64,000 bases of DNA from Nymphaea colorata. Taxonomy: Eukaryota > Streptophyta > Magnoliopsida > Nymphaeales > Nymphaeaceae. The stretch's first letter is position 1. Each line of letters opens with the position of its first letter. The stretch covers positions 22,275,703-22,339,702 of the forward strand of contig NC_045146.1 of NCBI RefSeq assembly GCF_008831285.2. The letters are read 5' to 3'. This document shows positions 1-46,696 of this stretch, one piece after another. The position numbers and the translations under genes were made by a program. The notes beneath the pieces were generated by a model. That model was not told the origin of the DNA. It was given only the letters and a program-made list of their open reading frames with translations, and made no database searches.

Positions 1-210
1 GGAACTCGTTGAGCTTATTTTTCTCTGTGGAGCAAGTGGAAATATCTAATGTGCATACGTTCTGAAACTAGTATATGCGTTCTGTATTTGGGGAATTTCA
101 TTCTGAGTAATCTACTTTTTCAATTATTCAACCATTTTATTTATTTTATTATAGAAAAGCGAATATATGAAACGGGTGAACTGAGTCAACTGACTCTTTC
201 AATATGGCAG

Positions 211-16200: not shown

Positions 16201-17564
16201 ACTTCATCTTAAACCTTCTCAATCAGGATTGTAGACTACAGCCTAGTACACATCATTGAAAAGCTTCAGGAATAACACATACATTATGCAAACTTTGTGG
16301 TTGCTACACAGTAAATGTTTCAGCCGGTGAATGTTTCATAACATTGACTATGCTTCTCGCATGACGTGAAGAATAGGTGGTTCAAATCTGTTTACCGTTT
16401 CACCATTAAAAGGAAAAGAGAGAAGTAAGAGAGAGATTTGATATGTACGTTTTATGTGATTCCTCAGTCTAACCCAAGAATCCGTATGACATGCACATGA
16501 TATCGCAAGCATTGATGCGCATGAACAGGGTAGGCGACATTGGCTATTTAATGACAAGAGGAATGGGAAAATACAAATGCCCAATCACTAAATTATCAAA
16601 TATATTTAACTAAACGTGGATCCAGAAGGACGGCCCTGAATCAGACCAGATTCCAAGTACTGACAGCTATTTAACTCGATCGTGCTTTATTTCTTTCAAA
16701 CTTGTGCGTCACTATTTTACCAGAATTTTCACTGGAACGGACTCTGTATACAATATAATTTCCGTGTTTTTAATTAATCTTCGTGATTCACTAGATTGAT
16801 GGTCACTTGCCATCCCACGGGACATCTTTCAGTTGACCAGCATCACAGCCAATTGTGTTATTTTAGACAAACTACTCTCCCTAGGAAGAAGCTACCAATT
16901 TCAATAACTTGAAACCAGAGTTCGATCTTCATTCCGGTCCTAAACATCTATAGGCTGCAAAGAGGGATGGACAACCAATGCAATGGCAATCTATTATTCA
17001 TTTCGACCATAAATTCAAAATTTCTGTAACCCAATTGTCAGTCGCAAAGCAAAGAAATCCTAACCCACAACTAAGAAAAAATTAACGCAAAATATATCAA
17101 GGAGATCAAAACAGATAAACCGCTCCTTGCCTGCTTCTGCATAGCTCGACAACAACATTATCCGGCCTCACCGTCTTCACCACGCGCTCGACATCCGCCG
17201 CCGACTCTGCGTCCACGTGATTGACCCCAATGATCCAGATCATCTCCGGCTCCACGAAACCATCCCCCCTTCTCGAGCCAAGGCGCGACTTCTTCACGAG
17301 GACCAGCCTCCCGCGTTCCACCAGATCAAGCAGCCTTGGGTGAAGCTCGGCGACCTCGGATTTCGATTCGGGCAAGAATTCCAATCTATAGTCGAAATCT
17401 AGAGGAGGGGGACTAATTGAAACCCTCGGGCTAGACTCCTGCAACCTCGTTCTCAGCCGTTTACAAGAGAAGACTGTCGGACTCTGACTGCGGAAGGATA
17501 GGAAAGGACATGAAACTAGGGTTCTGGTGAGGAGTGAGGAAGGAGGAGCACAGATTGACCCCAT
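13274..17564 (-). CDS. TraB/PrgY/GumN-family protein, probably plastid-targeted
   Basis: Seven exons on the minus strand: 17564-17131, 16139-16018, 15702-15614, 15499-15425, 15274-15164, 13923-13828 and 13561-13274 (stop TAA). The product is 404 aa. Three motifs define the family: GVNHVDAES (113-121), GDRPIEIT (233-240) and GVIGESHMNG (329-338); the two GxxH-type motifs are thought to bind metal in TIKI-type relatives. VVVELCRSRAG around residue 140 is also typical. Residues 1-60 are rich in Ser, Arg and Pro, like a transit peptide. A hydrophobic segment (about 378-391) near the C-terminus could anchor it in a membrane. The closest plant gene I recall is Arabidopsis At1g05270, whose role is poorly known. 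Intron 1 has a GC donor. A telo-box (AAACCCTA, 17596-17603) lies just upstream of the start codon. Confidence 0.93.
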
Positions 17565-25585: not shown

Positions 25586-25693
25586 AAGCAAGCAGAGGGG
25601 GGGGAAGGAGCAGGAACCACAGTCCTCTTACGGTGTCCTTCATTCTTCAGTACTTCAATCAGAAAGACCATTCTCTCAGGAATCATCCTTCTC

Positions 25694-25738: not shown

Positions 25739-25749
25739 ATCCTTGATAC

Positions 25750-26403
25750 ATGGAAAGCTCCCACTCCCAAGTGCCGGAAGATCCACCCACTCATGAAGGT
25801 GGTGGCAAGGCACCGGCAGGAAAGCTGCCGCCGGCGCCCGGGAGACACCCCATCTACCACGGAATTCGGTGCCGCAGCGGCAAATGGGTGTCGGAAATCC
25901 GGGAGCCCGGCAAGATGTCGCGAATTTGGCTCGGTACGTTCCCGACGCCGGAGATGGCCGCCGCTGCCTTCGACGTGGCCGCCCTCGCACTCAAAGGCGA
26001 AGCCGCCTTGCTTAATTTCAGGGACCTAGCGGCTTCCTTCCCAGTTCCTGCATCCACGTCAAGGGACGACGTCCGGGCGGCTGCCATGGAAGCTGCGGCG
26101 AGGTTCCGGCCGCCGGGCAGTGACGGCTCATCCTGTTCCGGGAGAGTCTCGCCGCCGGACAGTGGTCCCGTCTCAACGCCGACGCCCAACGTCGCGGAAG
26201 CTTCCAGTTCGCAATTGCCGGGCGACAGCGAGAAGGCGTCGGACATGGGGGAGTTCATCGACGAGGAGGCACTTTTCTACATGCCCAATCTGCTCGTGGA
26301 CATGGCGGAAGGGATGCTCCTGAGTCCGCCAAGAATTGGCCCGTTGGTGCCAGAAAACTCGCCGGAGAATTCTGAGAGCGACACTCTCTGGAGCTACCAG
26401 TAA
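25750..26403 (+). CDS. AP2/ERF transcription factor, DREB A-4 subgroup (ERF025-029-like)
   Basis: Intronless, 217 aa, GC-rich. A single AP2 domain spans about residues 33-91. KWVSEIREP carries the Val and Glu that mark DREB-type domains, and the short [10 protein letters not shown] turn is typical of the ERF025-029 clade. After the domain come SFPVPASTS and [14 protein letters not shown] (about 97-118), then the acidic C-terminal block [24 protein letters not shown] and the terminal LWSYQ. These fit the A-4 group, nuclear factors that bind DRE or GCC-like sites. At residue 37 the usual YRG reads YHG (codon CAC, 25858-25860), so a DNA-contacting Arg is missing. Its C-terminus closely matches the DREB1 protein 18 kb downstream in the same orientation. 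An upstream frame lies 11 bases before the start. Confidence 0.93.
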
Positions 26404-26783
26404 CTTTCTCACCTTCTCCCTCCTTTTGAAGGTGACCGAGAAAAGAGGAAAGGTTTCATCAATCATTGGACGTAGCGAGGGGTACATGCTGGTTGTGTTC
26501 TACCCTGATGATCGATTTTATGGTGGTTTGTCGTTTAATTTGGAGAGTCTTTGAAGGACAATAATAGTTAGTACTCGTGATGGGTAATAACGCCATTGAA
26601 GATATGGATGATGACAATAGCACCAATTGTGATCGTCACTTTGAGATTGCTTCTGCTATTTTCAGTATCAGATAGTACATATATTATTGGTCATATTACT
26701 GCATTCGAAGGTACCATTCTATCAAGCATCAACAATATCTCTCTCTCTCTTTCTCTGTGTTCCACTTTCTATGAAGATTTGGG

Positions 26784-27076
26784 GTGTATTTGAATGACTC
26801 CCTTAAAGGGCATTGTCGAGACAAACAGTTGTTTTGTCATTTCAGGTGTGTTTGGGTGACAGTCAAAACTAAAACACAGACCCTCCAAAAAATAGAGTTT
26901 TCAGAAAGGAAGGAATAACTTGACCTCCATGTGGTTTTTCATACGAAACACCACTTTATATGTATTACTCAAACAAACAAAACCAAGTTCTGAAAACTGA
27001 TAAAAGAAGGTCAAGTTTTATTATACAATTTGATCTTTACAAAATGATGTTCTTTAAGGGTGTCACCCAAATGCTG
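26784..27076. mobile_element. MITE-like element just downstream of the DREB A-4 gene
   Basis: The left arm ATTTGAATGACTCCCTTAAAG (26788-26808) matches the reverse complement of the right arm (27052-27072) at 18 of 21 positions. About 290 bp in all, with no coding capacity. Target duplications are not clear, so the superfamily is unassigned. Confidence 0.55.
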
Positions 27077-29915
27077 CATTAATGTTATACGTTTCACATA
27101 AATGTGAATCTAATTACAGAAACGGCTCGATCTACGTATCTGTAAGAACATCTGTAACACAAATCAACTTACCATGTCGATGGGCTTAATCTCCTTTTGT
27201 ACATGCTTCAATTCTAATATCAAGACCGATCAATAGCTGATCAAAGTTTATGTATATACAAGTATTTGAAAACAGTTCGTGTCTGACGTTCCAGACTATG
27301 CTGTCTGAACATTCATAGAATCTCAAGCTTTCTTTATTCCTGTCAATGTTGAGGCGCTGTCGGGTCGGAGCCGTTTCTCATTTTAAGAATTAATAAACAA
27401 ATGGAGATTTTTTAATGAAAAGAATAAAAATGCATGGAGCTAGCAGTCAGGGATGCAGCAGTTGTTGTTTTGTTCGAACTGGGAAGCTTCCTTTCCCATC
27501 TGGGCCTTGATCGTACTTCTCCGGGACCCGATTCCTCTCGTGCAAATTGTCTACATTAGATCATAATTTGTATTCACATGTAGCAGCCTAGAGTTTGCGT
27601 AGGACACCAACTTTGGTAGTCCAACGTTGATTTAAATAAATGATTATATTATATATCAGACCATGTCATTTCATGATATATCTGTGATGAAGGCAGAATT
27701 AAGGTTAGTCTAGATTAAAATTAGTGACTCCTTAACAATTTTTAGAATGATAAGTCTGCAAGTGATAAAAAAAGCCTCAACTGATCCATGTGCAGATTTA
27801 TTATAAAATTTTAAACTAACTGGTAGATGTGGTTACTCATAAAAGTAATTGAGAGAAAACAAAAGATGTGGTGGTCTATTTGTTGAATTCTCGTAGTTCT
27901 TCAGGTCCAGACAATTATTCGATGGAGTGCAGAAGCAGCAGAACAACATAATTTTGTCGAGCAACTGCTCTAATCTTGTCAATTTTTTGATCCAAAACTG
28001 ATAGGAGAGAAAGAACGATAGTCAATCATATTGTGGTTTCTACCATTAGCCGCAAAGACCAAAGATACAAATTAACCATTGAATCTGAAATTAAATTGTG
28101 TTTGATTGTCCTAACAGCTAGCAGCTTCCCTGCCAAGAGTTCCTTCCTGTTAGAACATTGACTCAGGAGATTGGATATTATTCCGTTCTCCTTCCTTTGG
28201 TTCTTGAAAAACTGAACTTTAACTTTCAAGATGGAGAAATTGAAGTCGGCCATGAAACCAAAAAGTTTTGCTTTCAGCCTTTTTGTTTTGGTTTGGCCGG
28301 CTGGCGTGAAAATGAGAGAGAGAGAGAGAGTCGTGTTCTTTTACCATAATATTTTTTTCTAATCAATTGACAGCTCCATGGCCAGTCAATATTGCGGCTT
28401 CTATACTTGACCATGACAAAATACAGAGAAAGAGAGAGAAAGAGAACTAAGACTCAGATTTGAGATCACCAATTTCAGCTTTGGACAAATTCTTTCTACT
28501 TCGCTCTCGAATTCATCACCGAGAAGGTTGTTGAAACTGCCACAACACTGTTGTTTGACTTGGAGGTTTTCTTCTTCTTCTTTTTTCTTGCTTGACGTGC
28601 TATAGATCGAGGAAATTGGTTCCATTCAACAAACGCTTTGATCAGTTCAATCATCATGCTATTGGTCGATTCTCATTTAGTAATGTTTTATTTGTTTTGT
28701 CATATCTCTATGCTCACGATTTTTTTCTTCACAGTAGAAGTTTATCATAATCGAGAATCAAAAGATGGCTAGTATTGATTACCATTAATAACTCGAAAAA
28801 GAAAAGGATGGTTACAATTCCCTTAAGAGGTGAATCAGATTTTTTTATGTTGCAGCCTAGTTTGATATCAGAATGGCACCATGCCACTTTTTCTGGGCTG
28901 TGGTCATCGTTCATTTAAAAGGATAAAACCCATAAGGTAGATTGCTTCAGTATGTTGCTAGCTCACAGATCTTGCTTGAAGTTTCCACTGTCATCAATTG
29001 TTCAATATACAATATATTATTATTTTTCGATAAATATCATGTTAATTGAACTTAAGTAGTTAACCTTCCGTTTACTTGAAATAGTCTTATGGAAATTTAC
29101 TCATCATGATATATTAGAGAATTTTGAGTACGTTTGAGAGTTTTCTTTTCCTCGTTCAACCTAGTCCTGGGGTGTGTCACTCCTTGTATAAATTGGCAGG
29201 GTTCTACTTAAGCCCAGAATGCTTAAATATGTGTTGTGTGTGTGTGTGTGTGTGCAACTCATGGACCTCTACACTTATAGTATATATTTATGGATTTCAA
29301 ACTTATGACCTCCTTCTGAAGTTCACATGTCACTCATATCAATGAGGTCCTTTCAAATACAACCGCTTTACAGTTTTGCACATTGTTCAACAAAAAAGGA
29401 TCTAACAAGAGCGTTTAGCACACCTCTAATGCAATATTGGACTGTTAATTTATTGGTATATTAATATATTCAAGAAGTCTTCAAATCATGGTTAGCAAAG
29501 ATTGATTAGATTCGTTCAAACGCCTATGTATATTTAAATAATGACATCGAAAGTAGGTGTGGTTGGCATTTAGCCAAGTGTCGGAAATAATTTGTTTATG
29601 ATTTCGGCGAAGCAGACAACATGAGATTGAGAGAAAGGAAAGAGGTCAGCAGGCCGATGGATTAGGTGAACGAGAATGAAGAATATGAAGAAATTGTTGG
29701 CGTCGTAAAAGAATGTTGCTGTTGCATGTGGCTACAAGGGTGGCCCTCCTTTTCCATTCTGATAAGAAGGGGCCACTTCAGAGAACTTCTATAGCGCTAT
29801 ATGGGGAAGCCAGATCTTACCAAGATGAAGTCCAAAGTTCAACGATGTCGAAAATTCATTTCTTATGTTACAAAGATAAACGTACGTATTTTTTAGAAGA
29901 TATTATACCTACGTA

Positions 29916-30552
29916 ATTTATCATGAAATGGCAGATTTATAAATTATGGTTAACTATCTACCTCAATTTTGAAATATAAATAAATATATATGTATATAGT
30001 GTGTTAATGATGACTTTGAATCACCCAGCTATATAATTCAGTATCATTTATCTAAAACATTGTGTGTGTGGGTGTGTAGTGAGAGAAAAACAGCTCTGCC
30101 ATATCCCTTTTTTCTTTTTGTTTTTTCTTAACCATCCATCATGATTGATCGAACGGCTTTAATTAGATGCTTATGTGATTTTGGAAAGATAGAGTCACCA
30201 CTAAATTTTCTTTTATATGCATATGTATGTGTGCATTTATCGAGAAATGGCAAATTTATAAATCATTGTTAACGATCTACCTCAATTTTGAAATGTAAAT
30301 AAATATATATGTATATAATGTGTGAATGATGACTTTGAATCAGCCAGCTATCTAATTCAATGTCATTCATCTGAAACATTGTGTGTGTGTGTGTGTATAG
30401 TGAGAGAAAAATAACTGTGACGGATCACCTTTTTTTGTTTTTTTCTTAATCATTCATCTTGATTGATTGAGTGGCTTTAATTGAATGATTATGTGATTTT
30501 GGAAAGACAAAGTCACCATTAGATTTTATTTTATATGTATATATATGTGTGT
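29916..30552. repeat. Tandem duplication, two copies of about 319 bp
   Basis: Copy 1 (29916-30234) and copy 2 (30235-30552) both begin ATTTATC.(G/T)GAAATGGCA and share GATGACTTTGAATCA, a TG run, and GTGATTTTGGAAAGA. Copies differ by scattered substitutions. The sequence ATTTAT recurs at both junctions and at the right end. A diverged relative is at about 37575-37800. Confidence 0.85.
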
Positions 30553-32334
30553 ATTTATGAAGTAGACAAAAATAAAGAAAAGGTTGCCATGAGGAGGTCG
30601 GGAAGGAGTAAGGTCTCCATCATCTAGCTAGCGCCCCATGTGGGTCAATATTGGCTAACATGCATGGTTGCAGTAACATGGTACTGATGTGGATATGTGT
30701 AACTGTGGTCCTAATTGTTAGGAGTGATTGGATATGATCAGCAGCCAGGCCTTGTGGCCGTCGTCTTCAAGCTTTGTGATCAGGTTCGATCACAACAAGT
30801 TGGCGGCCTTATTAATACATATTCGTCATATGAAACTCAATCTAAATGCCTAAACTGATCGATCGAGCCGACCATCTGGACCTCGATTTCCAGGAGGCAT
30901 GACAAGTCGATCTGCAAAGCGAATAGGAAGAAAAGGTAGAGAAGCAAATTTCTTTTTCTTCTTTTCTTTTTTTTTTCCCCTTCCTGCCTTTTCTTTTGCG
31001 CGTTAAAGTTGACATTGTCTTCTTTATATATATATATATGATCTACAACTTAGTTTTTTGGTTATGACAACATATTTCAGACTAAGTATACAACTTTCCT
31101 TTTTCTTTGTGAAGAAAAGGTCCAACACCGACAGTGGGCACTTCCGATTGATTAAATCCTTGAGTTCCCCTTCTGATTGGACACCGATCGACGTTTGCTT
31201 TGCACCTGGTTAGCTACAAATATCTTTTGGACCATGAGTTTCAATACTCCATTTATTTGGTAGCTGTCAGTTTGCCGTTTTTGTCTTTAGCCTTCGAGCG
31301 GTTACATGTGCATGATTTTCTACTGCATTATGTGGAAACGTTTTTCTGTATTTTTTCAAAATTATATATATATATCTATATCTGGTGTGGGGTATGGATG
31401 TAAAAAAAGAAAAACAAGTGTCTTTCAAAGGTCTGTGTCGAGCGTTTGAGGAAAGGGGAGTCTCCTTTCCCATCAGCGAGGGGTGGGCCCCTTGCCGTCG
31501 GCAGCGTGCTGCTGTCTTGCGGTGGCCGCCGGACGGGCCAGCGATGGCAGTCCATCAGCTATCGCAAGGCGGCGGCAGGCTCCTGGTGGTGAAGGGGGTT
31601 ACTAGTGTTTTTTTTTTTTTTTTAATTATTAACGTTAAAAAGTGGACGGAGGCCGGTAAGGGCAAGATGGCTGGTTATTTAGAATCATCCACTCAAGATC
31701 GTTCATCCATAGCAGATGAATAGTTGAGAGAAAAATCTGCTAAATAATAATAGATGACAAAATATCTATCATTTTTTTTCTTATTTCTCTCTAAATTGTC
31801 TATTATGTGGAATGTATAAATTACATGGTGTGACTTAAAAAAGATAGTATATATAAAGGTGACTATATATATTCAGCTAGTTATCTAAATATATGAGTAA
31901 CTAAATAAAAACTAGTCATCAAAATAGGGCGCACTGATCATATGTATGAGGTTTTAAACATCGGATTTTTCAGTGTTTTTTCTTTTCAAGTGTAGATTTA
32001 TCTGATCTCATCTATGAACTCCAATTTGAAAGAAATAGCCTCCACAGCCATATCCACAAACGTAGGTCAGGCTGCTGTAGTGATTTTTAAATCCAATCTA
32101 GCTAGTCGAAATTCTTTAACCCAAAGATTTAATTTAATTTTTGAATGAATATGCGTACAGAATAGTGAAAGCTCATCAATCAATTCATAATAGTTTACAT
32201 TTTTTTAACCAAGAAAAATATGTTTTGCCGCTAATTTTTTGAGACCACAAAACTATATCTTGGTGATAGCGGTCAAATTTGGTGACAAAGCGGGTTTCCA
32301 TTAAACCTACTTGGATGGTGAGTAGGAGGAGTAT

Positions 32335-32783
32335 TTAGAGGTATCAATATATATTTGATTTGCATCGGATATTCAATGGAACTGTTCCAAGAAAACGAAT
32401 GCGCAAGAAAAATTTAATATCCGATTAAGAAATCGGATTAGACTTGGATTTAAGAAATGACATTTGATTGGATTTGTATCGGATATGCATAAATATCTTA
32501 TTGGATTTGGATATGTATTCAGATCAGATTTACTTTAAAACAAATATCTATATCTAATACTCTTAGATTTTGAAAATCAGTCAAATTTAGATTTGGATTC
32601 AGATATCAATGTAAAAATCAGATTAGAATTGAATTCAGATTATGAAATCGGATTCAGATTCAGATATTATTTTTCTTTTTTTGTATTTGAATCCAAATTT
32701 GAATATGAATTTGTGAATTTTCGAGAAAACAGATAAGGTTAAAGATATATCTGATTAGAATCTGATCCGTTGACATCTTAAGA
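32335..32783. repeat. Degenerate GGATTTGGAT/TCAGAT repeat block, possible old transposon
   Basis: The block consists of diverged short units (GGATTTGGAT, CAGATTCAGAT, ATCGGATA). The left edge TTAGAGGTATCAA and the inverted right edge TTAAGATGTCAACGG resemble each other, as in many small plant inverted-repeat elements. No coding sequence is seen. Confidence 0.4.
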
Positions 32784-34484
32784 GTATCTCATCCTACCAC
32801 CTAATAAGAGAGTCAAAAACCCTAAGCTTGCTTTCAGTGTCTGAGGTGATGCTCTTCTGTAATGCTTCAACTTATATGTTGGTGTCTTCTTTTACAATAT
32901 AGCAAGTTGACTCCTTGAAAGATTGAAATGAAAGCTGAGAGCCTACCAACCCCCACCCTCTCAAGGATTCCACGGCACCTACTTAAGATCACAGACCACA
33001 TAAATTGCTTATTTGCATATTTTAGTGTCGTTTGTTTATTTGCATGTTAGTGCCCTTTATCTATTTTTCTATATTTTTGAAGAGTTAAGATTTTCTAAAA
33101 AGCCTAATATATAATTGCTATGTATTAGTGCCATTCAGCCAAAAATCTTTGGCTCTATCACGGCCTCGATCAACATACTAAGGCCCATTATCTTTGCTTT
33201 TCTTAATTTTTCAGATTTTTTTTATGGACACAATCTCCTAGAGACATGTTTGGCAACATTAATAAGTTGTTATTGTTTCATGAACTTACCTCAAAAAATA
33301 GGACATACGCATGAAATATTACAACATAGTCTATACTATGCATCTACCAATTTTTTCATTGGGGCATTGTTCGCATCCCCAAAATTTTTTGGTTTTGGAT
33401 TGCTCTAGAAAAATGAGTTTTGTTTTGAAAATGAGAAAGAAATGGACTTGCCCGTCGGTACTATAATCGATCGTTTCTGACGCCTTTACCGGGGGTAATC
33501 AATCCAAGGTCTATGTTTATTATTGATGCACTTCATTTTGGCTTAAACATATTTTCTATATGCGGTGTGGAAAAATATTAAAAATTTGATGTTTCAAACT
33601 TTTGAAAATGTTCTTGAAAAATTGTTTGAGAATGTGAAATATTTTGAAGAAAATTAGAGTTGGGAAATCTTTGTAAATATCATTTGAAAAAGCTTGGGAA
33701 ATCATTTTGGGAATCACTTTGGTGTTCTTTTAATACTTTAAGTATATTTGAGGTTTTGCTCTAATTTGGTTACCACCTAGTTAGAGTTTCATCTCATCTT
33801 GCTTAAGTTCTTTTAGACATGTAATTGTGCTCATTTGATATTAAATAGAGGTGAATGCATAGATGCATTGATCTTATATGATTTGAAGAAAGCAAAACAT
33901 TTCTACCACAACATACATCTAAAGGCATTCCTACTACAACATACATATAAGATTTTTGTTTTACAATTAACATAAACATTTTTTTTTACAAAAAAGAAAA
34001 GATTTTGGAATTGGATTTAAATTGTAGACCATCAAGCATGAATCCAATATTGAGTCATTACTTGAGTTGTGGTCTTAGTGAAGTCGGTAAATGAAAATGA
34101 TCTTCAAGAAGAAAATGTCCAAAATGATGCAAAAGATGAGATATTTGATTGTGAGGAAATGTAGAGAAGGAGAGAGAGAAAGAGGTCTCGAAGATCGCAA
34201 AATGAAAAATTTAAAAGAAAGAGATATATGCATTCATATACATATACATATACACATATACATATATATATATGTATATCTATATATGCATACATACATA
34301 TATGTAAGTTTATGAAAATGAGGTTTGAATTTAAGTAGAAAAAAAAAATGAAACTTCCAAAAGAAAGAGAAAAATAAATGGAGATAAGAAAGATGCACAT
34401 ACATGTGTATATACTATCACATATATTCATATATGAAAGATCGTAAAAACTTCCTTAGTTTGAAAAGAGAAACTTTTAAAGGAA

Positions 34485-34592
34485 AAGAAATATATATATA
34501 TATATATATATATAATTTGTAGATGTATGTTGTATTAGGAAAAGAAATATATATATATATATATATATAATTTGTAGATGAAAGCATTTGAC
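34485..34592. repeat. Duplicated TA-microsatellite cassette
   Basis: The cassette AAAAGAAA-(TA)n-ATTTGTAGATG occurs twice, around 34480-34525 and 34540-34585. It lies in a wider AT-rich, ATACATAT-rich tract (34215-34310 and 34630-34740). Confidence 0.8.
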
Positions 34593-35329
34593 TTGAAAAG
34601 AGAAAAAGATTTTAAAGAGAGAGAGTAAGAGATTCATATATGCATTCATATTCATACAAAAATTTGTAAAATGAAATATGTAAACATAGAGAGAGGATGA
34701 TAAAAATCATCATGTGCATACACATGTATATACATGTATGTCTTCAAGATATTAAAGATAAATTAAAACATCCGACTTCAAGTTTGATGTAGGCTGGCGG
34801 GGAGCTTCGACTCATGCAAGAGTTAAAGCTAAGTCTCTAAAGCAATATTAGAAAGGATTCTTTTGAAAATATTTTGAAAAACGTAAACATAAAACATAGT
34901 TATTTCATTGGTTGCAAGGGAATATGTTTCTTCCACCGTTGGATATGGAAGAAACTCAAACCACATGATAGGGCACTCAATAGGTTTCATAATCGGTCGA
35001 TTAAAAGGAAACTAACGCGAAATGATATGAAAATGCACTTTAACATGTACAAATTCGTGAAGGTTCCTCTCGGGTTGGACAAGCCCCAACCTCAAAAATT
35101 AATCAACACAATAATAAAGAGAGAATCTCAAACCACACTCTCATTCTCATCATGCATTCGCATATAAATGAAAAATTAAGCAAGCATGTATTGATAGTAT
35201 ATAAACAATATTCAAGGAAGGAAAGCAAGAGAGAGAGAGAGCATGATGGAGGGAGAAAGAGAGAGAGAACATGATGGAGTGAGGGAGAGAAAAAATATGA
35301 TGTAAAGAGAGATAAAACATGAGGTAACT

Positions 35330-36060
35330 ATGAAGTGATATACCATTTCATCTTTTCATGCTCTCGGCGCACTCAAGCATAGCCTCTTGTCTCTAAAATA
35401 GAGATTGAGTGCTATCTCTTTTAGCCATGGGGAGATGAAGATGAGAAGAAAATGAAGACAATGTCATATTTAATAGCAAATATGATTTAAGCATGAAATG
35501 AAAGATCATCTCATCTTTCCATGCTCCCGGTGTACTCGAGCATAACCTCTTGTCACTAAAATAGAGATTGAGTGTTATCTCCTTTGGTCATGGAGAGATG
35601 AAAATGAGAAGAATATAAAAAATGAAAGACAATGCTATATTTAATAAAATAAAAAGCATGATTTAATCTTGAAATGAAAGATCATCTCATTTTTCCATGC
35701 TCCCGGTGCACTCGAGCATAGCCTATTGTCTCTAAAATGGAGATTGAGTGTTATTTCCTTTGACCATGGGAAGATGAAGATGAGAAGAAAATAAAGAGAA
35801 CAACAACCAAACTATATTAAAAAAAAAAAGAAATAGCAATAATAACAAGAATATATTAATAAATGGAAAGAACAACAACAACAACACTATAAACAAGAAA
35901 AGAAATAACATGATTTAATCATAAAATGAAAGATCATCCATTCTTCTTATGCTCCCGGTGCACTCGAGCATAGTCTCATGACTCTAAAATAGAGGGTGAG
36001 AGTTATCTCCTTTGGTTATGGAGAGAGGAAGAAGAGAGGAAAATGAAGAAAGAAATATGT
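35330..36060. repeat. Tandem repeat family, four diverged units
   Basis: A unit containing ATGCTCCCGGTGCACTCGAG, an ACTCTAAAATAGAGATTGAG-like stretch and GTTATCTCCTTTGG recurs at about 35358, 35520, 35696 and 35948. Spacing grows from about 162 to 252 bp because AT-rich, AACAAC-rich spacers are inserted between units. No open reading frame runs through it. It may be part of a retrotransposon terminal region, but I see no paired terminal repeats. Confidence 0.8.
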
Positions 36061-39000
36061 GAGATATTGATTACATACCTCTAGTGAGAATAACTTTTGA
36101 AAAAATGAACACCTTCGCTTGGAGATCCCTTTGAGTGAAGCTCCAAGACGATGCCTTCAAGAGGGTTGTGACTTAATGAAGCTTGCTCCCAAATTAGAAA
36201 AAAATGAAAATAGGAAGAGAGAGAGAGAGAGCTCGAGAGAAATTCTAAATCTAAGTGAGAATACACTAAAGTTTCTCCTAAAGACCAACTCTTGCTCAAG
36301 AAAAGGTATTGTAGGGGTATTTATAGAGAGTTTTGGAACCAAAACTCAAAATTTGATTTTTTTTTATTTTCTCAACATTTTCATCCGAATTTCGAAGAAT
36401 TTTGAATTATTTTCTAATAATTTTTTTAAAAAATAGGTTTTCACTAAGTGGGATTGACCACTAGCCCTGCAAACACCCATTTGAGGTGTGGGTAGGCCTA
36501 TTGCCCACCCAACGAAATCAAATCCGCCCCCTAAGGGGCTGTTTTTTGCAAGGAAAAGGAAGGGGGCATGCAATAACAGGCCCCTACCTGGGCTCTTGAA
36601 GACCACGCGTGGCAGCGTGCAAGGCACCGCACGCGGCAGCGTGCAAGGCACCACCATGCGCAGAGGTGCTGCAGCGACCGCGTGACGTGGTTGCTATAGC
36701 GATCGCTCACGCCAACGCGTAGCGCGTGAAGCTACGTGATCGAGCGCGCACATCATGCGACGCGCGGTCGCGCAACGTTCTATCGCGGGATGCGCAATCC
36801 CCTTTTTTTAATGAAATTCATTAAAACATATAAAAAAACTATTTATATAGGAAGCATGATATATTTTTTATTTAAAATATAAAAAAAAAGTTTTTCAAGT
36901 AAAAACATAAGAATTCATTTTTTTCTTGTTTAATTTACCTAAAAGACATATAAAATAAAAATTTTTGTTATATAAGGGGTGGTCGACTCCATTTTTAGCG
37001 ACTCTGAACTCCCTCCAAATCCAATTTTGGTTTAGTTGGTTGTCGACTTGTTTGAGCATGCGACTTGGGTTTAAAACACGCTTTAGCGTGAGACATGAGT
37101 TCTTAAAACAAAGAAAAGGTCTGTGCAAGCACGATGCTCAAATTTTGTCGTTTCGAACGCGGTTCGAATTTTGGGTCTGAAATGCTCAATTTGGATTTGA
37201 ATTTAGGTTTTGGATCTAATTTGGATCTTAAAATTGTGTTTTGCATTTTGATAAAAGAGTGTAGCCCTTTGAAAAAATTTAGGGTGATTACAGGCACGTT
37301 CATAAAACAATAACAACTTGTTACTATTGTCCTACGGGTCCTAATTATAGAGCCATCTATAAAGCAAGTCCAAAAGTCCAAAAATTTTGATTAAGATGTG
37401 GTTGGCCCACATCTAGTATGATTCAAGTTGTCGACCTAATGGCAGTAGGGTGTAGATCTCTTGAATAAATTGTTCTTTTATTATTAGATGCATATTATTA
37501 GATCCGAAATAGAGTCAAACTCAATTCAGTTTGATACTGGAACACTTTATATATATATATATATATATATATAAAGGTGAGTAAATGATGACTCTGTTTA
37601 TAATCACCCAGCTATTTAACCATGGTTGCCCATATAAAGAAAATGAATAGGTGAGAAAAAAACAAAGAAAAAGAGGTGCAAAATAATATTAAATAATGAA
37701 ATTAACCATAACCATTTTCTCTTTATTTTTGTCATCACAGTCTATCATGTTGGTTTCAACGGTGCAAATTAAATGGTTGAATGACTTTAATATATATATA
37801 TATATATATATAAAATAACGTGATGGCTTATTTTTGGCAAAGCCTGCCTGAAAATCTGGAACCATTTTTTGTTGTAAATATATCTCCATCAACAAAATTA
37901 AAAGAAAGGGGCTATCCCCACGCACCCTTTGTCCGAAAGACGAGAGCTTACAATCGACTCCTTTTTTCTCGTCATGTCGTTCCCTCTAGAAACAAGTACT
38001 TTGACAATTGACAATGCTTTTCTATAAAATTAGCCATGAAACTGAGATCGGTTCCTACATACATATATTATTTTCTTAGTGTTTAGAATAGAATCGACTA
38101 GCCACAAAAGATAAAATGACCGTTAAATATATAAAATTTGGCCTACGCGAAAAAAAAAAAAACGAAACGAAAAAACAAGAATTGAACTTTATGTCAAGTT
38201 CTAAGCTTTTGATTTTGAAAATCATATGCGTAGGTTATGAAAAGGCCGACTTGAAATATGTATTGGGGACTTGAAATATGTATTGCCATTAAAAGGTTTA
38301 GATCACGAACGAACGAGGGAAGAAAACTTTTACCTCAATTGTTTATCACAGTAACTATAGTTTAATTATAAAGATGACTATACCAGACTGGTAGTAGGGC
38401 GCGGCATCAAAGTTGAAGGGTGTTCTGTTCTACCACTGACTCAGGACCCCAAAGGCAGGGAGAATAGAGGGGGGGTCTTACCGTATTGATGCTACTGGAA
38501 TTCAAAATAAATATTGACTGCCTGCCAACCCCCTCAAATGTTACAGACTGCCCACCAACCCTCTCAAGAGTTGAGTTGCAGCGTCAAACTTTTACGCCAC
38601 CAAAGGTGTTGGTCTTGTGTGGCCGGCTTCATGTCCCTGAAGACGTTTGGTAACAAGAATATTGTGTCCTTCAAACAAGTACACTCTTAAAACAACATTC
38701 TAGAAACATGTGTTCTACCAACACTTGCTCTTCTTACTAACAAAAGTGATAAGGAATCTTGAAATTATATCGATCAAACAGCTACCCCTCAGGTTATTCA
38801 TTTAAAACCGAGATTTTGGTTGCCCTCCCAAACATGAAAAAGATATTCTTCAAAACTCATCAAGAAATTCATTTTTTGAAAATCAAGTTTTTTGAAAAAT
38901 CATTTTCTCAATGTAATAGTAATACCCAAACACTGCCATAATGTGTGTTCGGCCCTCGAACACCCACGAGGAACTACCTCGGGCCTTAGTCCATAGAAAA

Positions 39001-40649
39001 TTTTATGTTCGACGTCCCAACACCAACGACCTTATGTAGCACAGCTGCCAATTAGTGGGAGGCACCTGCCAAAAGGACAAACTTAGTTTCAAAGCAGAGG
39101 CAGCCGTAAGGAGAAGGGACCTTGAAAAGTAGGGTTGAGTACTCAACCTTCAACCACAGTTGGCTGAATCGCATCAGTTAGCTCGGATCGCTAAAAAACC
39201 TGGCCACGAATCAGGGTTGGCCCGACTCACCTTTGCCTCGGCCAAACTTGGCCTTGACTTGCCCAATTCAAGAAGTCAACTTGCTGACCCAGTGACCCGG
39301 TCATCTGTTGATCCGAATATCAGTCACGGGTTTGCCAACTATGCCTTCAACAGCCCTTTCAAACTCCACCGACCATGCCACATTTATTCTATATGCAAAT
39401 ATAAATATTAGTCAGACTCTTCTCAATTTCTATTAAAAGCTGCGCCTCCACAATTGAACTCCCCTCGATTTCTTTAACTCCAAACTACGCCTCAGTTCAA
39501 CCCCCAAATGAATTATACTGCCTTTGGTCTTACGGCTAAAGCAAGTGTTTCTGGTAGGCGAAGAAAGTCCGTTGAAGTTGTTCTATGAGGGACAGCTAGA
39601 GCCAGGCAAGTTGTGACGCATCCAAGAGACTCGCTGGAAAAGCAAATTAAAAGAAACACGATCTGGATACGGAGTTTCGCTATCTGCACCACAAACACAA
39701 ACGCAGAAGAACAATTTGAATAGAATTGTCGCAATCACTCCATTCGATCAAATGAGTGTGTGCCATGTGAAAGCAAATGCGAAGCTTTAAAGCAAAGGAA
39801 AAGGACGGGGATTTGGCCATGAAAAGGTAGCTTTGCTCCAGTTGCCGGATTCGATATTTTTCCATCTCGTTTCATGTGAACAAACCCGTATTGGTTCTCC
39901 ATGCAACTAGATGAGCCTAAATTAACGATAGAATTAAAGAAGCCGAGCCTGAGCTTGGTCGAGTGCCCAGCATGGGCCGATGCAGATGTGGAAAATTATC
40001 TAGACAGATCCCAAAAGAAGTTTTATTTTCATGTTGTCACTTCAATATAATTTTTCCCATTTATATATTCGTACCCCTTAAAAATTTTAAATTTTATACA
40101 TAACGCCTTTCAAATGGAATTTTCTGCTCTGCCACCTGAATTCCAGTCAGTGGCATATATACACTAACTAAATATCGTTACTTTTCTTTTTTTTATATAT
40201 AACGAGCGCTTAATTAATTCTGTCTTAAGTTTTTTCAAATGCTGATATAAAATAGTGCATATAGGATTTGGAACTTTTTGTTCCACCTGAAAACTACCAT
40301 TAGACAACAAATGGGAAAATGATAAAGCGATTATCTTCTATGGATAAATTTTAAAAAGCAAAAAAGTTAATTTTGCTGAAAAGAACAAAAATGCCCTTAA
40401 AAAAAATACTCATTGCATGGGAAATTAAAACCAGCCAAATGCATGGTGGATGTTACTGGGGGTTGAATATTTATGATCATTAGTGCACCATAAATTGTGG
40501 TATACTACTATAAAGAGTTGCTCATACTCATATAGTATAATATTTTTTAGAGACTGTTTTCATATACTTAATCATCTGATAACATCCGGCAACCAATTGA
40601 TTTCAATTTCTCCCCATCTTGCGCACAAATTGCATGGTTGCTATGTGAT

Positions 40650-40837
40650 CAAGGGCGGAGCCAAGGTAGGGCCCTGGCCTCATCTCAACTTTTTTTTTTT
40701 TTAAAGTTTACATGTAAAATTTTAAAATATTTCACTTGTTGTATATAAAAATTTTGAAAAATAACATTTTGATTCTAGTTAAACTTTTGAAACTTTAATT
40801 TGGTTCGCCTTATGAAAAACTTCTAGCTCCACCCTTA
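40650..40837. mobile_element. hAT-type MITE (188 bp) with exact 8-bp target duplication
   Basis: The left end CAAGGGCGGAGCCAAG and the inverted right end TAAGGGTGGAGCTAGA match at 12 of 16 bases. An exact 8-bp direct repeat, TATGTGAT, flanks it at 40642-40649 and 40838-40845. The GGCGGAGCC-type terminus recurs in many plant hAT MITEs. It has no coding capacity and includes a poly-T run. Confidence 0.8.
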
Positions 40838-41635
40838 TATGTGATGGATTCCGTTCCGTTCCTGCAGAAGTGAGAAGACGCTTCTCTTGCAAAATGTCCA
40901 AATAAATTTCTAAAACAATAAAAGAGTATGTGGTAACTAGTGATGATGATTTGAAGAGCAAGAGAGAGATCAAGAAGAAGTGCATATATTTTAAAGGGAA
41001 AGTTGACAGTCGGTGAACAACCAAAAATAGGCTTGTTTGAGCTTTGATCGTTTGTTTTTCATCTTGCATGCAGGAACCATTATAACCTGATTTATATCTT
41101 GTTGGAACACCAACCTAAAGGATATTATGTAGTTGCATGACTGTTACATCTCTAGTTTTTGCGATATAACGTGATATGATAGAATACTCTTTGGTATGAC
41201 TGAAGGTAATTAAATTTATATTTGAAAACTGAGGGGAGCCGAAGCAGATGCAACCTGACTTGTTAGCCCCGCAAGTAAAGCACAACAAAAGAGACCTGCG
41301 GTGGTCCTGTTAATGGCGGTTTTAATCAATTAATCATGCAATGAAAGGAGAGTAGTGAATGCGTTACTGCAAATTGAAATTGAGGCCAACCGGTCATCAT
41401 CCCCGTCGCTTTACGCATCATTAACTAATAATAAAAAATGGTGCAAGCTATCAACTCGGTACGTTTTTCCGGCAACTTGGCATGTGCTAAATTGTTCAAC
41501 CAGCACGCACATGGTGCTACTATCCACTTGTTGAACAAGTAGAAAGAAGAAAATTTTCTCAGCCTCCTCACTATTTGACTTTCAGTTCACTCACAACCAA
41601 CTGCCCGGAAAAGAGTCCAAGATTCTTCCTATCTT

Positions 41636-42019
41636 TAGGACCGGTTTGATGCATTAGAAATATTAAGTAAGTTGGAAAGAAGTTTTCATAAACTTATTTG
41701 AAAAAATGAAAACAAAATCTATCTTTCCAAAACCTTTTTGTGTTTGTTGTACATGGGTTTATGTTTTGCGAAATAAATTTCTCAGTTTGATAAGAATGGA
41801 AGAAGAAAAAACAAAATAGTTGGATTAAGCATTGCTTGAAAGTCCAACGGTAACTTTCTTCATTCTGGAAATGTTTTTTCCACCCCTTGAGATGGAAAGA
41901 AATTTATGAAAAAGACTTTCTGAAAACCAACTCAAGGTTCACTTTTTCATCTCAAGTTTGATGGGCAAGAAAAATTTTCAAAAATTTGAATTTTATTTAC
42001 ACCAATCAAACAGGCTCTT
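41636..42019. mobile_element. Possible MITE
   Basis: The left end GGACCGGTTTGATGCATTAG and the inverted right end GAGCCTGTTTGATTGGTGTA share a CC(G/T)GTTTGAT core, as in many small plant transposons. Flanks TCTTTA and TCTTAA are only a rough duplication. Evidence is modest. Confidence 0.35.
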
Positions 42020-43441
42020 AAGGTGCGGCCTGCATTAGCATCAATGATGGCAGCAGTCACACTCCATTATCTAAAACATAGATGTATAATGCCCATAAGA
42101 ATTGATTTGCCTCTTGGTTCTCCAGTCAAACTAGTTAAACACTTTGAAAGTGTTTAATAAATTTATCCAGAGATTGAGTAGTGTTCTAGTGTTTCATGAA
42201 TTTGATTTAACTTTTGATATAAATTCATGGAATGGTCAGAGATTGTTGTTTGAATGGTCAAATAATTTCTATGATGAGATAAAGAAACTTTTCCTGTTTA
42301 TCTTTTCTTACTCGTCAATTTCAAAAAGCAACAAGTATGGAAGTCATTCTCACCATCTGTTTGATTGCCTTGTGCAATGAATTCGACCTTTTACTTTTAC
42401 TGGCTTTGAGACGCCCGACCTCCATGCCCTCTCTGTCTCAACTCACACACGCAATGAACAGCTAGGCTGACTTGGGCGCCGCTGCAAACAGGACAGCTAT
42501 ACACATGTTGACACACGCTCCGCGACCCCTCTTCAACTCAAGTATACACCTTTACAGCAAGTCCAAGCCATATAAAATAATCCCCCAATTATACTTTGTC
42601 AACAAACATTATTAACTGGCATACCAATTCTTTCATATGGATCAACATTCTTCTGACTCCAAACAAAACCCAACAGCAACGGAGGCCCCCTTTTTTATTT
42701 CTTAATCACTCAACTTTATATCCCAACATGATATTGATATATAAAGTTGTCGTTGTCTTCCCTTCTTTTCTCTCTCTCTCTAAAAGGTGAGCCCCCACCT
42801 TTATAAAAAAAACAAGACCATGAGGAAAAGAAACACGCGGGTAAGCCCACCCCACCGTACTTCCCGCCTCCTGTGTGAACAAAATCTAAAGGGGGGCGGG
42901 CTCGCTCGCGATCAACTTCCGTACCTCACAGATGAGCTAGCTCCCCACTACTCTAACCTTATCTGCTAAACCGCTAACGGCTAATCATTCCGGTGGACAT
43001 ATTATATAATTCTATGGTTCACATCCGTCGGCCTCACAGTAACAAAGGTTTTGCCTGATTGGAACATAATAAAATATTGTGAGGCAACAAATCAATTTAG
43101 GTATGTTCATGTAGACAGCCAAATGTGTAATAAAACAATTTATCTGTGTTCATGTGGGCAACTGTCACACATATGGCTCTGCCGCCTATAGCTACTCAAT
43201 TCAGGTTATAAAAAAAAATCCACAATTGGTTTGAACAGTGAGTCCCACAGAGGGAGGTGATTTCAGATCAGCTTCTTTTAAAAGCAGTCATGTAACCCAA
43301 AAAAAAAAAAAAAAAAGGAAGAGATGCACGCTTTTCCCAAAACCAGGGGAGGAGGCCGTGGAGTGGAAGTGCGGATCCGAACGTCCGGTTTTGTTGGTAT
43401 GTTGTTACGAAAAGGAGGAGGGGCCCGCACGTTGTAATTGT

Positions 43442-44252
43442 CACGTGAGACGCGGTACCGCGGAAAGCCAACCCAAACGGTCTCTCTTACCTGTCTAACC
43501 GTGTTGGGTCCTACCCGCCTGCCTTCCAACTGTCAGGTCACCCTCCGAAGTCCAAGTGGGCTCCCCACCCCCGTGCACTTCACTCGCCGATCATGATATT
43601 ATTTTCTGATATGCTCATCGATTAAACTGAGCCCTAAACAGACTCAAATTTAACAGCAAACGGCTCCCGTCCATGTCATGGAGAGAGCAGCTGACTATGG
43701 AGAAATGGACTCGTCGAGACTCCAAGTCCAGTAGGTGGGTCGCTTTCCGGGGGGATATTTCCCCGTCCGTTCGGAGTCAGTCACATGTAGAGGGAAGGGA
43801 GGGAGGGAAGCTCGGTCCAGCCCATTCGATGCACTCCAGCTGTTTGACTGCCGGGGGGCGTTGAATAGACGCCTTCCTTTTTTTTAAAATCCAAACAAGT
43901 CCAGGTCAACCAAACCATCTCCGTCACCCCCCACTTGACCACCGCCGGACCTCCGTCACCGGAACTCCCCCACCACAACTCACACGCTGTTCCTCTGTTT
44001 CCGGACGGAAGAAAAATCGCCGGGGGCCCCGCAGGTCGTCATCCAGTCCGGAGAGAATTTTGGTGCTTTTGTTTTTTTTCTTCACCAGAACGCGTGGCCC
44101 ATCTGCCACATCAGCGGATATGGTGACGTGTCGTCTCCAGCTGGATGTGAATCAGCCTATTGAATGCCGAGAAGCGCCCGTCCAGGCTGGTGACCTAAGA
44201 GAGAAACCGTGTGTGCTGGGCCCCCACGACTGAGGAACCCAAAACTATAAAG
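43442..44252 (+). promoter_or_regulatory. DREB1 promoter: TATA box, CAMTA-type, G-box and ABRE-like sites
   Basis: TATAAAG (44246-44252) lies 131 bp before the start codon in a good core-promoter position, followed by a pyrimidine-rich leader with no upstream ATG. Upstream are ACGCGT (44090-44095), ACGCGG (43450-43455) and CCGCGG (43458-43463). These fit the vCGCGb site bound by CAMTA factors, known activators of CBF genes in the cold. A palindromic G-box CACGTG is at 43442-43447 and ACGTGTC at 44126-44132. Motif matches only. Confidence 0.5.
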
Positions 44253-44382
44253 CCCCCGCCACTTCCCTCACTCCCCTCTCGACCAACACCTCCCCAACTT
44301 TACTTCCCCTCCAACTCAATTCTCAGCTTACTCCTCCTCTTCACTTCACTGCTCTCCTACCAATCGTTCTCTAATCCTGCAG

Positions 44383-45072
44383 ATGACGGACTACTCCAAC
44401 TTTCCGGCGCAGGGCTTCCCCTTCCTCTGCGGCACCACCGACAACAAGCTGTGCCTCGAAAACGCCCAGGGCTCGCCCCTTTCCGACACCGGCGAGCTGC
44501 CACCCAAACGCAGAGCTGGCCGCAAGAAGTTCCGCGAGACCAGGCACCCCGTCTACCGTGGCGTTCGACGCCGTAACGGTGGGAAATGGGTGTGCGAGGT
44601 GCGTGAGCCCAACAAGAAGACGAGGATATGGCTCGGGACGTACCCGACGCCGGAGATGGCGGCGAGGGCACACGACGTTGCGGCCCTCGCGCTCAGGGGG
44701 CGGTCTGCTTGCCTCAACTTCAAGGACTCCGCCTGGCTGCTCCCTTCTCCCCCCTCCTCCAGTGCGAAGGACATTAGGCGGACGGCGATGGAGGCAGCCG
44801 AGAGGTTCCGGCCCAAGGAGATGGAAGGCGTGGAGGGAGAGCAGGCGGAAGGGGCCGGTGGAGCCAATCCGGCGGCGGCGTCTGCGGGGGCGGCGACGGG
44901 CGGCGGCCGGGACAGCGTCTTCTTCATGGACGACGAAGCGGTGTTCGGGATGCCGAGCCTGCTGGACAGCATGGCGGAAGGGATGCTTCTCTCGCCTCCC
45001 TCGTGTGGGTCCCCCTTCGATGACATGGAAGACGACGACGCAGACGTCCAGCTCTGGAGCTACTCCATCTGA
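44383..45072 (+). CDS. DREB1: DREB1/CBF cold-response transcription factor
   Basis: Intronless, 229 aa. The CBF signatures flank the AP2 domain: [16 protein letters not shown] (41-56) before it and DSAW (115-118) after it. The domain (about 58-113) includes [20 protein letters not shown], with the DREB-type Val and Glu, and [20 protein letters not shown]. The C-terminal half is acidic and carries [19 protein letters not shown] (188-206) and the terminal LWSY motif (224-227), expected to activate transcription. DREB1/CBF proteins bind CRT/DRE (RCCGAC) sites and switch on cold-tolerance genes. The motif reads DSAWLL rather than the usual DSAWRL. The stop TGA lies 443 bp from the stop of the convergent GEN1 gene. 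The start is supported by a TATA box at the right distance and an ATG-free leader. Confidence 0.97.
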
Positions 45073-45515: not shown

Positions 45516-46621
45516 TTAGTTAAACAGAAGCCTTCTCCGCGCAGATTTCGATAATTCTGCAGCCGGAGCAATTGTACGCTTGTCGACATTCTGTGACGGT
45601 GAAGCAATGCCGGCATCCTTGATGGGTATGATTTGATCAGAAGAGCTTAGCCTCTTTGTTGATCGGAAGTACTCGGTGATGCTGCGCTGTGCGGTTCCTT
45701 GATCAGTGGGGGATTTCCGGCGCCCAGATTTGGCCTTCTTTACTTCCTGCAGAGAGCGGGAAATGGGCTCAGAGGAGAAATGAATTACTCAGAGTTGGAA
45801 AAATAGCGTTGATTTCACGTCAAACTCAAACAAATGTTCGAATTCCTCAAGCGGGCCATGTTTGAGGCTGTAAGACCGTCTGAGAGTCGATGCAAACCCA
45901 GTTCGATACATGAGCAAAAGAACAGCCAGTTCGTAATTAAGCTGCATCTACAAGTTGAAACATGAACCGGTTCAAGCAGTGGAGTTGGGCAGATTTTTAT
46001 AAATCGACCGTTGTAATGGGGAGCAGGAGAACTTTTTGTCTTTATGGAAAGAACCCCACTAGATTTTTGCTGCAGCTTTCTGATCGGTCGGTCACGTATT
46101 TTGCCGAAGCTTTTTGGATCACGTGCTCAGGAATTACTATTCTCAAATATGATTTAATAATGATCCATATGCATCAGCTTGGCAGACGGAAAAGGATTGA
46201 ATCCATGCCGTAAAACTTTTTGGTTTTTAACTGTAGTTTCGAGATTGAGCAGCGACGACCCGTTCTTTGGTGTCTTTAGTGCTGACTGAGAGCAAAGGTC
46301 GTGAACCAGTCAGGACATCGCTTGGGCGTCTCGGTTTCTTAGCTGTACCGATTGAATCTGATTTTCTATGTATTTAAATTTATTTCTTGAGTCAACAAAT
46401 TAATGCAAGAGCTGTAATGTCAAAACCGTCCCCTCTTTACAAGTAGATGGTTAATTGGAAGAATATCATGGTTAGTCCAGGGTCCAATTTGCGAAGAAAT
46501 GCTACATGCATGTCTTTTACACATCATGCAAGATCTGTAGGTTAACAAGGTGCCTTTCTGTGCATGCATGAAATTAGATTTTAACGGTTTAAAAGATTTA
46601 ACCTTTTTAGTTTTATAAAAT

Positions 46622-46696
<75 letters not shown>

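What the first reader, a model, noticed from the sequence alone, without database searches (positions are those of the whole stretch)
25750..45072. Linked DREB A-4 and DREB1/CBF genes look like an ancient tandem pair
Both genes are intronless and in the same orientation, with no recognised gene in the 18 kb between them. Beyond the AP2 domain they share an (D/K)-(D/I)-x-R-x-x-AMEAA-x-RFRP helix, then MPx[12 protein letters not shown] and a terminal LWSY. In Arabidopsis, as I recall, DDF1 (At1g12610) and ERF027 (At1g12630) are also neighbours, and an origin of CBF genes from an A-4-type gene by tandem duplication has been proposed. This window keeps one copy of each, which would make it a good outgroup for the expanded CBF clusters.
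Basis: partly seen in the sequence, partly recalled or inferred. Interest (0 to 1): 0.7.

Follow-up and report, generated by a model that had tools for sequence, protein, structure and literature searches.

The report
Ancient neighbouring plant cold-response genes
Two neighbouring plant gene-switch proteins, one of them of the CBF type that controls cold acclimation, look like an old side-by-side gene duplication whose neighbourhood is also seen in grape, Arabidopsis and rice; the origin story is already published, and this stretch is one more, unusually complete, example of it.

Summary
Two uninterrupted ORFs, 25750-26403 and 44383-45072, both on +, encode AP2 proteins: one A-4 type (HARDY/ERF025/ERF027-like), one A-1 type (DREB1/CBF). 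After AP2 they share a helix block and a C-terminal block far beyond chance (0 of 5000 shuffles each). Pfam found no credible domain in 136 of 144 ORFs in the gap. [quoted passage not shown] 2022, seen only through citing papers). I add gene order: the window reads PFC1-like, TraB, A-4, CBF, GEN1. Printed tables show the same linkages in pieces: DREB1B-ERF025-ERF027-TraB in grape; TRB3, At5g52020, CBF4 and PFC1, GEN1 by locus number in Arabidopsis; DREB1-TraB and GEN-L/DREB1B in rice. The linkage thus probably predates the monocot-eudicot split. Species, genome-wide copy number and outgroup value could not be tested: the genome search did not complete eight times.

The parts
25750..26403 (+). 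Intronless A-4 (HARDY/ERF025/ERF027-like) DREB gene, 217 aa
   Evidence: ORF; AP2 36.1 bits; 23 of 25 identical to Populus MEME motif 6 (motif read); WVSEIRE in the AP2 domain
25858..26019 (+). AP2 DNA-binding domain of the A-4 protein (about residues 37-90), with His at residue 37
26062..26103 (+). Post-AP2 helix (residues 105-118) in a block shared with the CBF protein
   Evidence: predicted helix; shuffle test of the 40 residues after AP2
26254..26400 (+). C-terminal block of the A-4 protein, from [14 protein letters not shown] through [10 protein letters not shown] to LWSY
   Evidence: (D10)
26404..44382 (.). 18-kb gap without a recognised gene; holds diverged tandem repeats (two copies of a unit of about 318 bp at 29916-30558; four copies of about 169 bp between 35290 and 36049)
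44383..45072 (+). Intronless A-1 (DREB1/CBF) gene, 229 aa
   Evidence: ORF; AP2 60.2 bits; CBF signature at 13 of 14 fixed positions; DSAWL and LWSY
44246..44251 (+). TATA-like element 137 bp upstream of the CBF ATG
   Evidence: 0.09 expected; 8% of simulated promoters have as many
13274..17564 (-). TraB-family gene with introns, left flank of the pair. Only the first exon (17106-17564) is recognised by a model; the rest and the end at about 13274 are judged by eye
   Evidence: NCBIfam TIGR00261 traB 26.7 bits, E 2.5e-6, and Pfam PF01963 E 0.0068, both partial and below the curated cut-offs; the ORFs 15332-15562 and 13277-13630 gave no TraB match
5506..10391 (-). KsgA/RsmA-type rRNA dimethylase gene with introns; PFC1-like only by eye against recalled PFC1
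   Evidence: exon 10140-10391: PF00398 35.7 bits, above cut-off, TIGR00755 E 1.9e-11. Exon 5509-5892: TIGR00755 E 0.0045 only, no Pfam hit, no relevant PDB match
46613..52488 (-). GEN1-type Holliday-junction resolvase gene (XPG_N, XPG_I and Chromo_2 exons), right flank of the pair; start at 52488 read by eye, 3' end uncertain
   Evidence: best PDB match of the XPG_I exon is human GEN1 5t9j at 4.4e-14, next 2.6e-6
180..359 (+). Fructosamine-kinase exon near the left edge of the window; outer flank
   Evidence: PF03881 59.1 bits; 3 ORFs of the left flank match the family

Best explanation
Two paralogous DREB transcription factors of AP2/ERF group III stand side by side because CBF/DREB1 arose next to an A-4 (HARDY/ERF025/ERF027-type) gene by tandem duplication early in angiosperm history, and the neighbourhood has been kept here. 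Shown: two intact single-exon AP2 genes in the same orientation; homology outside AP2; flanking genes that match partial linkages printed for grape, Arabidopsis and rice. Inferred from family knowledge: the CBF protein binds CRT/DRE ((A/G)CCGAC) and activates cold- and dehydration-response genes through its acidic C-terminus, while the A-4 protein is a DRE/GCC-type regulator of development or ripening. Inferred from gene order: an ancestral block PFC1-TraB-A4-CBF-GEN1 that later lineages broke up after genome duplications.
For: Similarity beyond AP2. A-4 assignment: 23 of 25 identities to Populus motif 6, against 16 of 25 for the CBF protein. A-1 assignment: signature and LWSY (definitions). 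Grape chr16 order DREB1B-ERF025-ERF027-traB within 41 kb. Arabidopsis TRB3 At5g52030, At5g52020 listed as one entry with HRD and At1g12630, CBF4 At5g51990. Rice Os08g43200-43210 (DREB1) and Os08g43230, matched to AT5G52030, colinear with the CBF4 region. Rice OsGEN-L Os09g0521900 beside OsDREB1B Os09g0522000 by number. PFC1 At1g01860, GEN1 At1g01880. 3 of 4 A-1 loci of Arabidopsis have an A-4 gene within 3 locus numbers; 0 of 20000 random placements reach this. Tree: window A-4 with ERF025 (SH-aLRT/UFB 88/86), window CBF with A-1 (99.8/86) (JTT). Third-base differences at 39 of 62 fourfold sites, so the duplication is old. CBF genes found only in the angiosperms of a 43-species survey.
Against: The branch uniting HRD, ERF025 and A-1 to the exclusion of TINY has low support (79.9/39 JTT, 78.1/41 LG), and the AP2-only tree does not recover it. 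HRD falls with A-1 rather than with ERF025 in the full-length trees (66.9/41, 80.5/50) and in the C-terminal-only tree (84.9/83), but with ERF025 in the AP2-only tree (79.5/74). Locus-number adjacency is not a map. The TraB gene was not shown to be the TRB3 type, nor the dimethylase to be PFC1 rather than Dim1, except by eye against recalled sequence. CBF1-3 of Arabidopsis have no A-4 neighbour (nearest 731 or more locus numbers away). Grape has two A-4 genes, so 'one of each' need not be the starting state.
Confidence: 0.8

Rival explanations
1. The two genes are linked anciently, but not as sister products of one tandem duplication: the block once held several group III genes (A-4 copies and CBF) and what stands here is a remnant of a larger cluster.
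For: Grape has ERF025 and ERF027 beside DREB1B. HRD groups with A-1 rather than with ERF025 plus window A-4 in the full-length trees (UFB 41-50) and the C-terminal-only tree (UFB 83).
Against: No third AP2 gene or relic found in the window. The AP2-only tree puts HRD with ERF025 and window A-4 instead (79.5/74); rows recalled.
Confidence: 0.13
2. Chance or recent neighbourhood: two group III genes brought together by rearrangement in this lineage.
For: They are 18 kb apart and share 47% identity over 179 aa; many DREB genes exist in a plant genome (75 in Populus).
Against: Same linkage with a TraB flank in grape and, by locus numbers, in Arabidopsis; random-placement test.
Confidence: 0.03
3. 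One of the two genes is decaying: the A-4 protein carries His where the other AP2 domains looked at have Arg, and has a low AP2 score.
For: His37; Arg in the other ten rows of the alignment (nine of them recalled) and in the two PDB alignments shown; 36.1-bit AP2 match against 60.2 for CBF.
Against: Full-length open frame with GC3 0.72 and 23 of 25 identities in motif 6 argue for constraint.
Confidence: 0.04

Closest known systems
Grape chr16 Ver1 interval: Vitvi16g00941 (DREB1B), Vitvi16g01860 (ERF025), Vitvi16g00942 (ERF027), Vitvi16g00944 (traB) (PMC11376399, Table 3)
   Same: Order CBF - A-4 - TraB within 41 kb (names are that paper's BLASTx predictions)
   Different: Two A-4 genes; the gene listed beyond DREB1B is a valine-tRNA ligase, not GEN1; ARR genes lie beyond traB; no PFC1 among the 12 genes of the interval
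Arabidopsis At5g51990 (CBF4), At5g52020 (ERF025, name recalled), At5g52030 (TRB3)
   Same: A-1, A-4 and TraB genes within five locus numbers
   Different: PFC1 (At1g01860) and GEN1 (At1g01880) have locus numbers on another chromosome
Arabidopsis At1g12610/At1g12630 and At1g63030/At1g63040 (DDF1/ERF027 and DDF2/ERF026; names recalled)
   Same: A-1 and A-4 genes two and one locus numbers apart
   Different: Next to the paralogue pair AT1G12640/AT1G63050 (recalled as MBOAT acyltransferases); no MBOAT family appeared in the window scans
Rice chr8 and chr9 DREB1 clusters
   Same: DREB1 near Os08g43230, matched to AT5G52030, on chr8; DREB1B beside GEN-L on chr9 by number
   Different: DREB1 in tandem clusters; no A-4 neighbour mentioned in the part read
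[quoted passage not shown] 2022, 10.1111/jipb.13357)
   Different: The paper is not held; known here only through passages of PMC11897497 and PMC12559889

Membership tests
DREB A-1 / CBF (gene at 44383) | AP2 domain | tested here: met
   PF00847 60.2 bits
DREB A-1 / CBF (gene at 44383) | PKK/RPAGRxKFxETRHP before AP2 | tested here: met
   13 of 14 fixed positions, so not letter-perfect; R for P at position 4, as in Populus motif 14
DREB A-1 / CBF (gene at 44383) | DSAWR after AP2 | tested here: met
   DSAWL: 4 of 5, containing the shorter DSAW form also named in PMC3473061
DREB A-1 / CBF (gene at 44383) | C-terminal LWSY | tested here: met
   LWSYSI end; motif named
DREB A-1 / CBF (gene at 44383) | Binds CRT/DRE; induced by cold or drought | not testable with these tools
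   no assay; promoter scan without clear signal apart from a mild E-box excess (9 against 3.9 expected)
DREB A-4, HRD/ERF025/ERF027 type (gene at 25750) | Ser at the A-4 position of the AP2 domain | tested here: met
   WVSEIRE; position named for A-4
DREB A-4, HRD/ERF025/ERF027 type (gene at 25750) | [25 protein letters not shown] block (Populus motif 6) | tested here: met
   23 of 25 identical; the parts of the paper read give the motif without naming its group, so the tie to A-4 is inferred
DREB A-4, HRD/ERF025/ERF027 type (gene at 25750) | Groups with ERF025/HRD in a tree | tested here: inconclusive
   with ERF025 at 88/86; HRD moves between trees; 11 rows, 9 of them recalled
Ancient tandem pair (A-4 beside A-1) | Same orientation, no recognised gene between | tested here: met
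   (136 of 144 ORFs, Pfam only)
Ancient tandem pair (A-4 beside A-1) | Linkage conserved in distant genomes | tested here: met
   grape, Arabidopsis, from printed tables and locus numbers only
Ancient tandem pair (A-4 beside A-1) | A-4 (HRD type) and A-1 are sister clades, or A-1 nested in A-4 | tested here: inconclusive
   weak or unrecovered
Ancient tandem pair (A-4 beside A-1) | Linkage in early-diverging genomes (Amborella, Nymphaea) | not testable with these tools
   no plant genome collection on hand; the genome search on the window's own assembly unanswered

The most novel reading that the evidence does not exclude
The window keeps the neighbourhood in which CBF was born nearly unbroken: PFC1-TraB-A4-CBF-GEN1 in one 47-kb run, of which grape, Arabidopsis and rice each keep only a part. 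If so, it ties the origin of CBF to one datable block, and PFC1 and GEN1 become markers for finding the birthplace locus, and its epsilon duplicate, in any angiosperm.
Probability: 0.5. Interest if true: 0.5.

Novelty: new member of a known kind. Interest (0 to 1): 0.33.

Why it matters
CBF/DREB1 genes are central regulators of cold acclimation and have expanded in many crops. The tandem-duplication origin is published; this locus offers a compact, well-flanked example with which gene order, not only trees, can test it. The flanking markers (TraB and PFC1 on one side, GEN1 on the other) make the test straightforward in any assembled angiosperm. In grape an A-4 gene of the same neighbourhood (VviERF027) is the candidate for the veraison locus Ver1, so the two halves of the pair appear to have taken quite different roles.

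Tried and rejected
Searches for relatives in the collections on hand gave nothing: CBF protein in plasmids and in viral contigs, the pair alignment in viral contigs, the A-4 protein in prokaryote genome contigs. These are collections of prokaryotes, plasmids and viruses, so this says nothing about the genes in plants. Rfam at gathering thresholds and ARAGORN found nothing in the window. Promoter scan of 1 kb upstream of each gene: no clear cold-response signature; two GCC-box matches upstream of the A-4 gene against 0.13 expected, and an E-box excess upstream of the CBF gene (9 against 3.9); ten motifs in two promoters with no correction, so not used. A joined tblastn hit of the CBF protein reaching 69 bp upstream of the A-4 ATG crosses an in-frame stop and was dismissed. 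Populus locus numbers place A-1-like genes beside other DREB genes (0001s08710/08720 with 08740; 0012s13870 with 13880; 0015s13830 with 13840), but the paper states group membership for few of them and its tandem-pair numbering disagrees with its table, so I do not count them. The Arabidopsis A-1 and A-4 lists used were read from the order of a table column, with group membership inferred; the number of locus positions per chromosome there was recalled. A PDB search with the second dimethylase exon gave no relevant match.

ORFs dropped before the Pfam scans: 8 of 144 in the gap and 17 of 268 in the flanks, overlapping or directly bordering the two DREB genes. The flank set was also filtered beforehand for length (52 aa or more) and composition. 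Beyond the families named in this report the flank scans gave weak single matches that I did not follow (for example DUF267, XK-related, DUF1340).

Full report
What is there. The window holds two uninterrupted ORFs on the + strand, 25750-26403 (217 aa) and 44383-45072 (229 aa), each with one AP2 domain. The first has an in-frame stop just before its ATG; the second has a TATA-like element 137 bp upstream of its ATG. In a 43-species survey CBF genes were found only in angiosperms: none in the algae, mosses, Selaginella or Picea listed, three in Amborella (PMC7607821, passages). The window therefore most likely comes from a flowering plant; which one I could not determine.

Identity. The second protein fits A-1 (DREB1/CBF): 13 of 14 fixed positions of the signature PKK/RPAGRxKFxETRHP, DSAWL after AP2, WVCEVRE within it, and a terminal LWSY (definitions from passages of PMC7607821 and PMC3473061, and section 13 of PMC3845248). 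The first fits A-4: WVSEIRE, no CBF signature, and a C-terminal block identical at 23 of 25 positions to motif 6 of the Populus DREB survey (PMC3845248 Table 3; comparison; the CBF protein has 16 of 25). HRD, At5g52020 and At1g12630 are listed as one entry, which I take to be an orthogroup, in PMC11461274 (passage). The names ERF025 for At5g52020 and ERF027 for At1g12630 are recalled; grape's genes carry these names.

Shared ancestry. BLASTP aligns 179 residues at 47% identity. After AP2, two blocks are shared beyond any of 5000 shuffles, while the linker is at chance and the N-terminus near chance. AlphaFold predicts a helix (residues 105-118) in the first shared block, after a three-strand-plus-helix AP2 fold; the model is low-confidence overall (mean pLDDT 54, two sequences). 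PMC6399210 (passages) reports that the region after AP2 and a region near the C-terminus are predicted to be ordered in DREB III proteins. At fourfold sites of shared residues 39 of 62 differ, so the split is old.

Phylogeny. The node joining HRD/ERF025 with A-1 to the exclusion of TINY has 79.9/39 (JTT) and 78.1/41 (LG), and the AP2-only tree does not recover it. HRD falls with A-1 in the full-length trees (UFB 41 and 50) and in the C-terminal-only tree (84.9/83), but with ERF025 and the window A-4 in the AP2-only tree (79.5/74) (all). This is compatible with A-1 beside or inside A-4 but is not a test passed.

The gap. Of 144 stop-to-stop ORFs of at least 48 aa touching the 18-kb gap, 136 were scanned against Pfam; two families appeared once each, at E 0.0044 and 0.0079, about what chance gives for 136 queries. 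No transposon domain was seen. The gap holds diverged tandem repeats. No AP2 relic was found. A gene without a Pfam domain, or an RNA gene outside Rfam, is not excluded.

Neighbours. Left of the pair: a fructosamine kinase at the window edge, a KsgA/RsmA-type dimethylase (5506-10391, -; one exon strong, a second weak), and a TraB-family gene (about 13274-17564, -; only its first exon recognised). Right of it: an XPG nuclease with XPG_N, XPG_I and Chromo_2 exons (46613-52488, -), whose XPG_I exon has human GEN1 as best solved relative, 4.4e-14 against 2.6e-6 for the next. That the dimethylase is PFC1 rather than Dim1 rests on a by-eye comparison with recalled PFC1; that the TraB gene is TRB3-type was not tested.

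Gene order elsewhere, from printed tables. Grape chr16: DREB1B, ERF025, ERF027 and a traB gene in that order within 41 kb (PMC11376399 Table 3, section 13 part 1 read). Arabidopsis: CBF4 At5g51990 and At5g52020 (PMC3623832, passages), TRB3 At5g52030 (PMC9513094, passages); PFC1 At1g01860 (PMC2860759, passages) and GEN1 At1g01880 (PMC7516265, passages). Rice: Os08g43200-43210 (DREB1) and Os08g43230, matched to AT5G52030, in a segment colinear with the CBF4 region (PMC3473061, section 14 part 1 read); OsGEN-L Os09g0521900 next in number to OsDREB1B Os09g0522000 (PMC5655823, passage). Three of the four A-1 loci of Arabidopsis have an A-4 gene within three locus numbers, the CBF1-3 locus has none; 0 of 20000 random placements of 17 genes did as well (with gene lists inferred from the order of a table column). 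The window thus unites linkages that three other genomes keep in parts. The simplest reading is that the window's order is close to ancestral and predates the monocot-eudicot split. Locus numbers are a proxy for position; I saw no maps.

What is known. [quoted passage not shown] 2022, which is not held. The main idea of the finding is therefore in print. I did not come across the five-gene block PFC1-TraB-A4-CBF-GEN1 in the listings of my searches or in the parts of papers that I read, but the most relevant paper could not be read, so no claim of priority is made.

How it works. Inferred from the families: the CBF protein activates CRT/DRE-containing stress genes. The A-4 protein is a DREB-like regulator; in grape its counterpart VviERF027 is the candidate for onset of ripening. 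The duplicates kept the helix and C-terminal blocks, while the region before AP2, which carries the CBF signature, shows little similarity (221 of 5000 shuffles), so that signature is the likely CBF-side innovation.

Verdict. A real, old, conserved pair: a new example of a known linkage, with unusually complete flanks. Its value as an outgroup depends on the species and on copy number, neither of which could be determined.

Noticed in passing
window 25858-25860 (A-4 protein residue 37): The AP2 domain reads YHGIRCR where the two solved AP2 domains shown have Arg, as do the other ten rows (nine recalled). That Arg is, as recalled, a base-contacting residue in AtERF1, so DNA binding may be altered.
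   Followed up: partly
window 29916-30558 and 35290-36049: Diverged tandem repeats inside the 18-kb gap: two copies of a unit of about 318 bp, and four copies of about 169 bp (TRF: 176 bp x 2.8 at 35314-35795).
   Followed up: no
window 55919-56027: Perfect 25-bp tandem repeat, 4.4 copies.
   Followed up: no
window 5506-10391 and 46613-52488: A PFC1-like dimethylase and a GEN1 gene flank the pair here; their Arabidopsis counterparts At1g01860 and At1g01880 are two locus numbers apart, so the DREB pair may once have stood between them there too.
   Followed up: partly
window 24750-25749: Two GCC-box matches (GCCGCC) within 1 kb upstream of the A-4 ATG against 0.13 expected, suggesting possible regulation by ERF proteins; not corrected for the number of motifs tried.
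   Followed up: no
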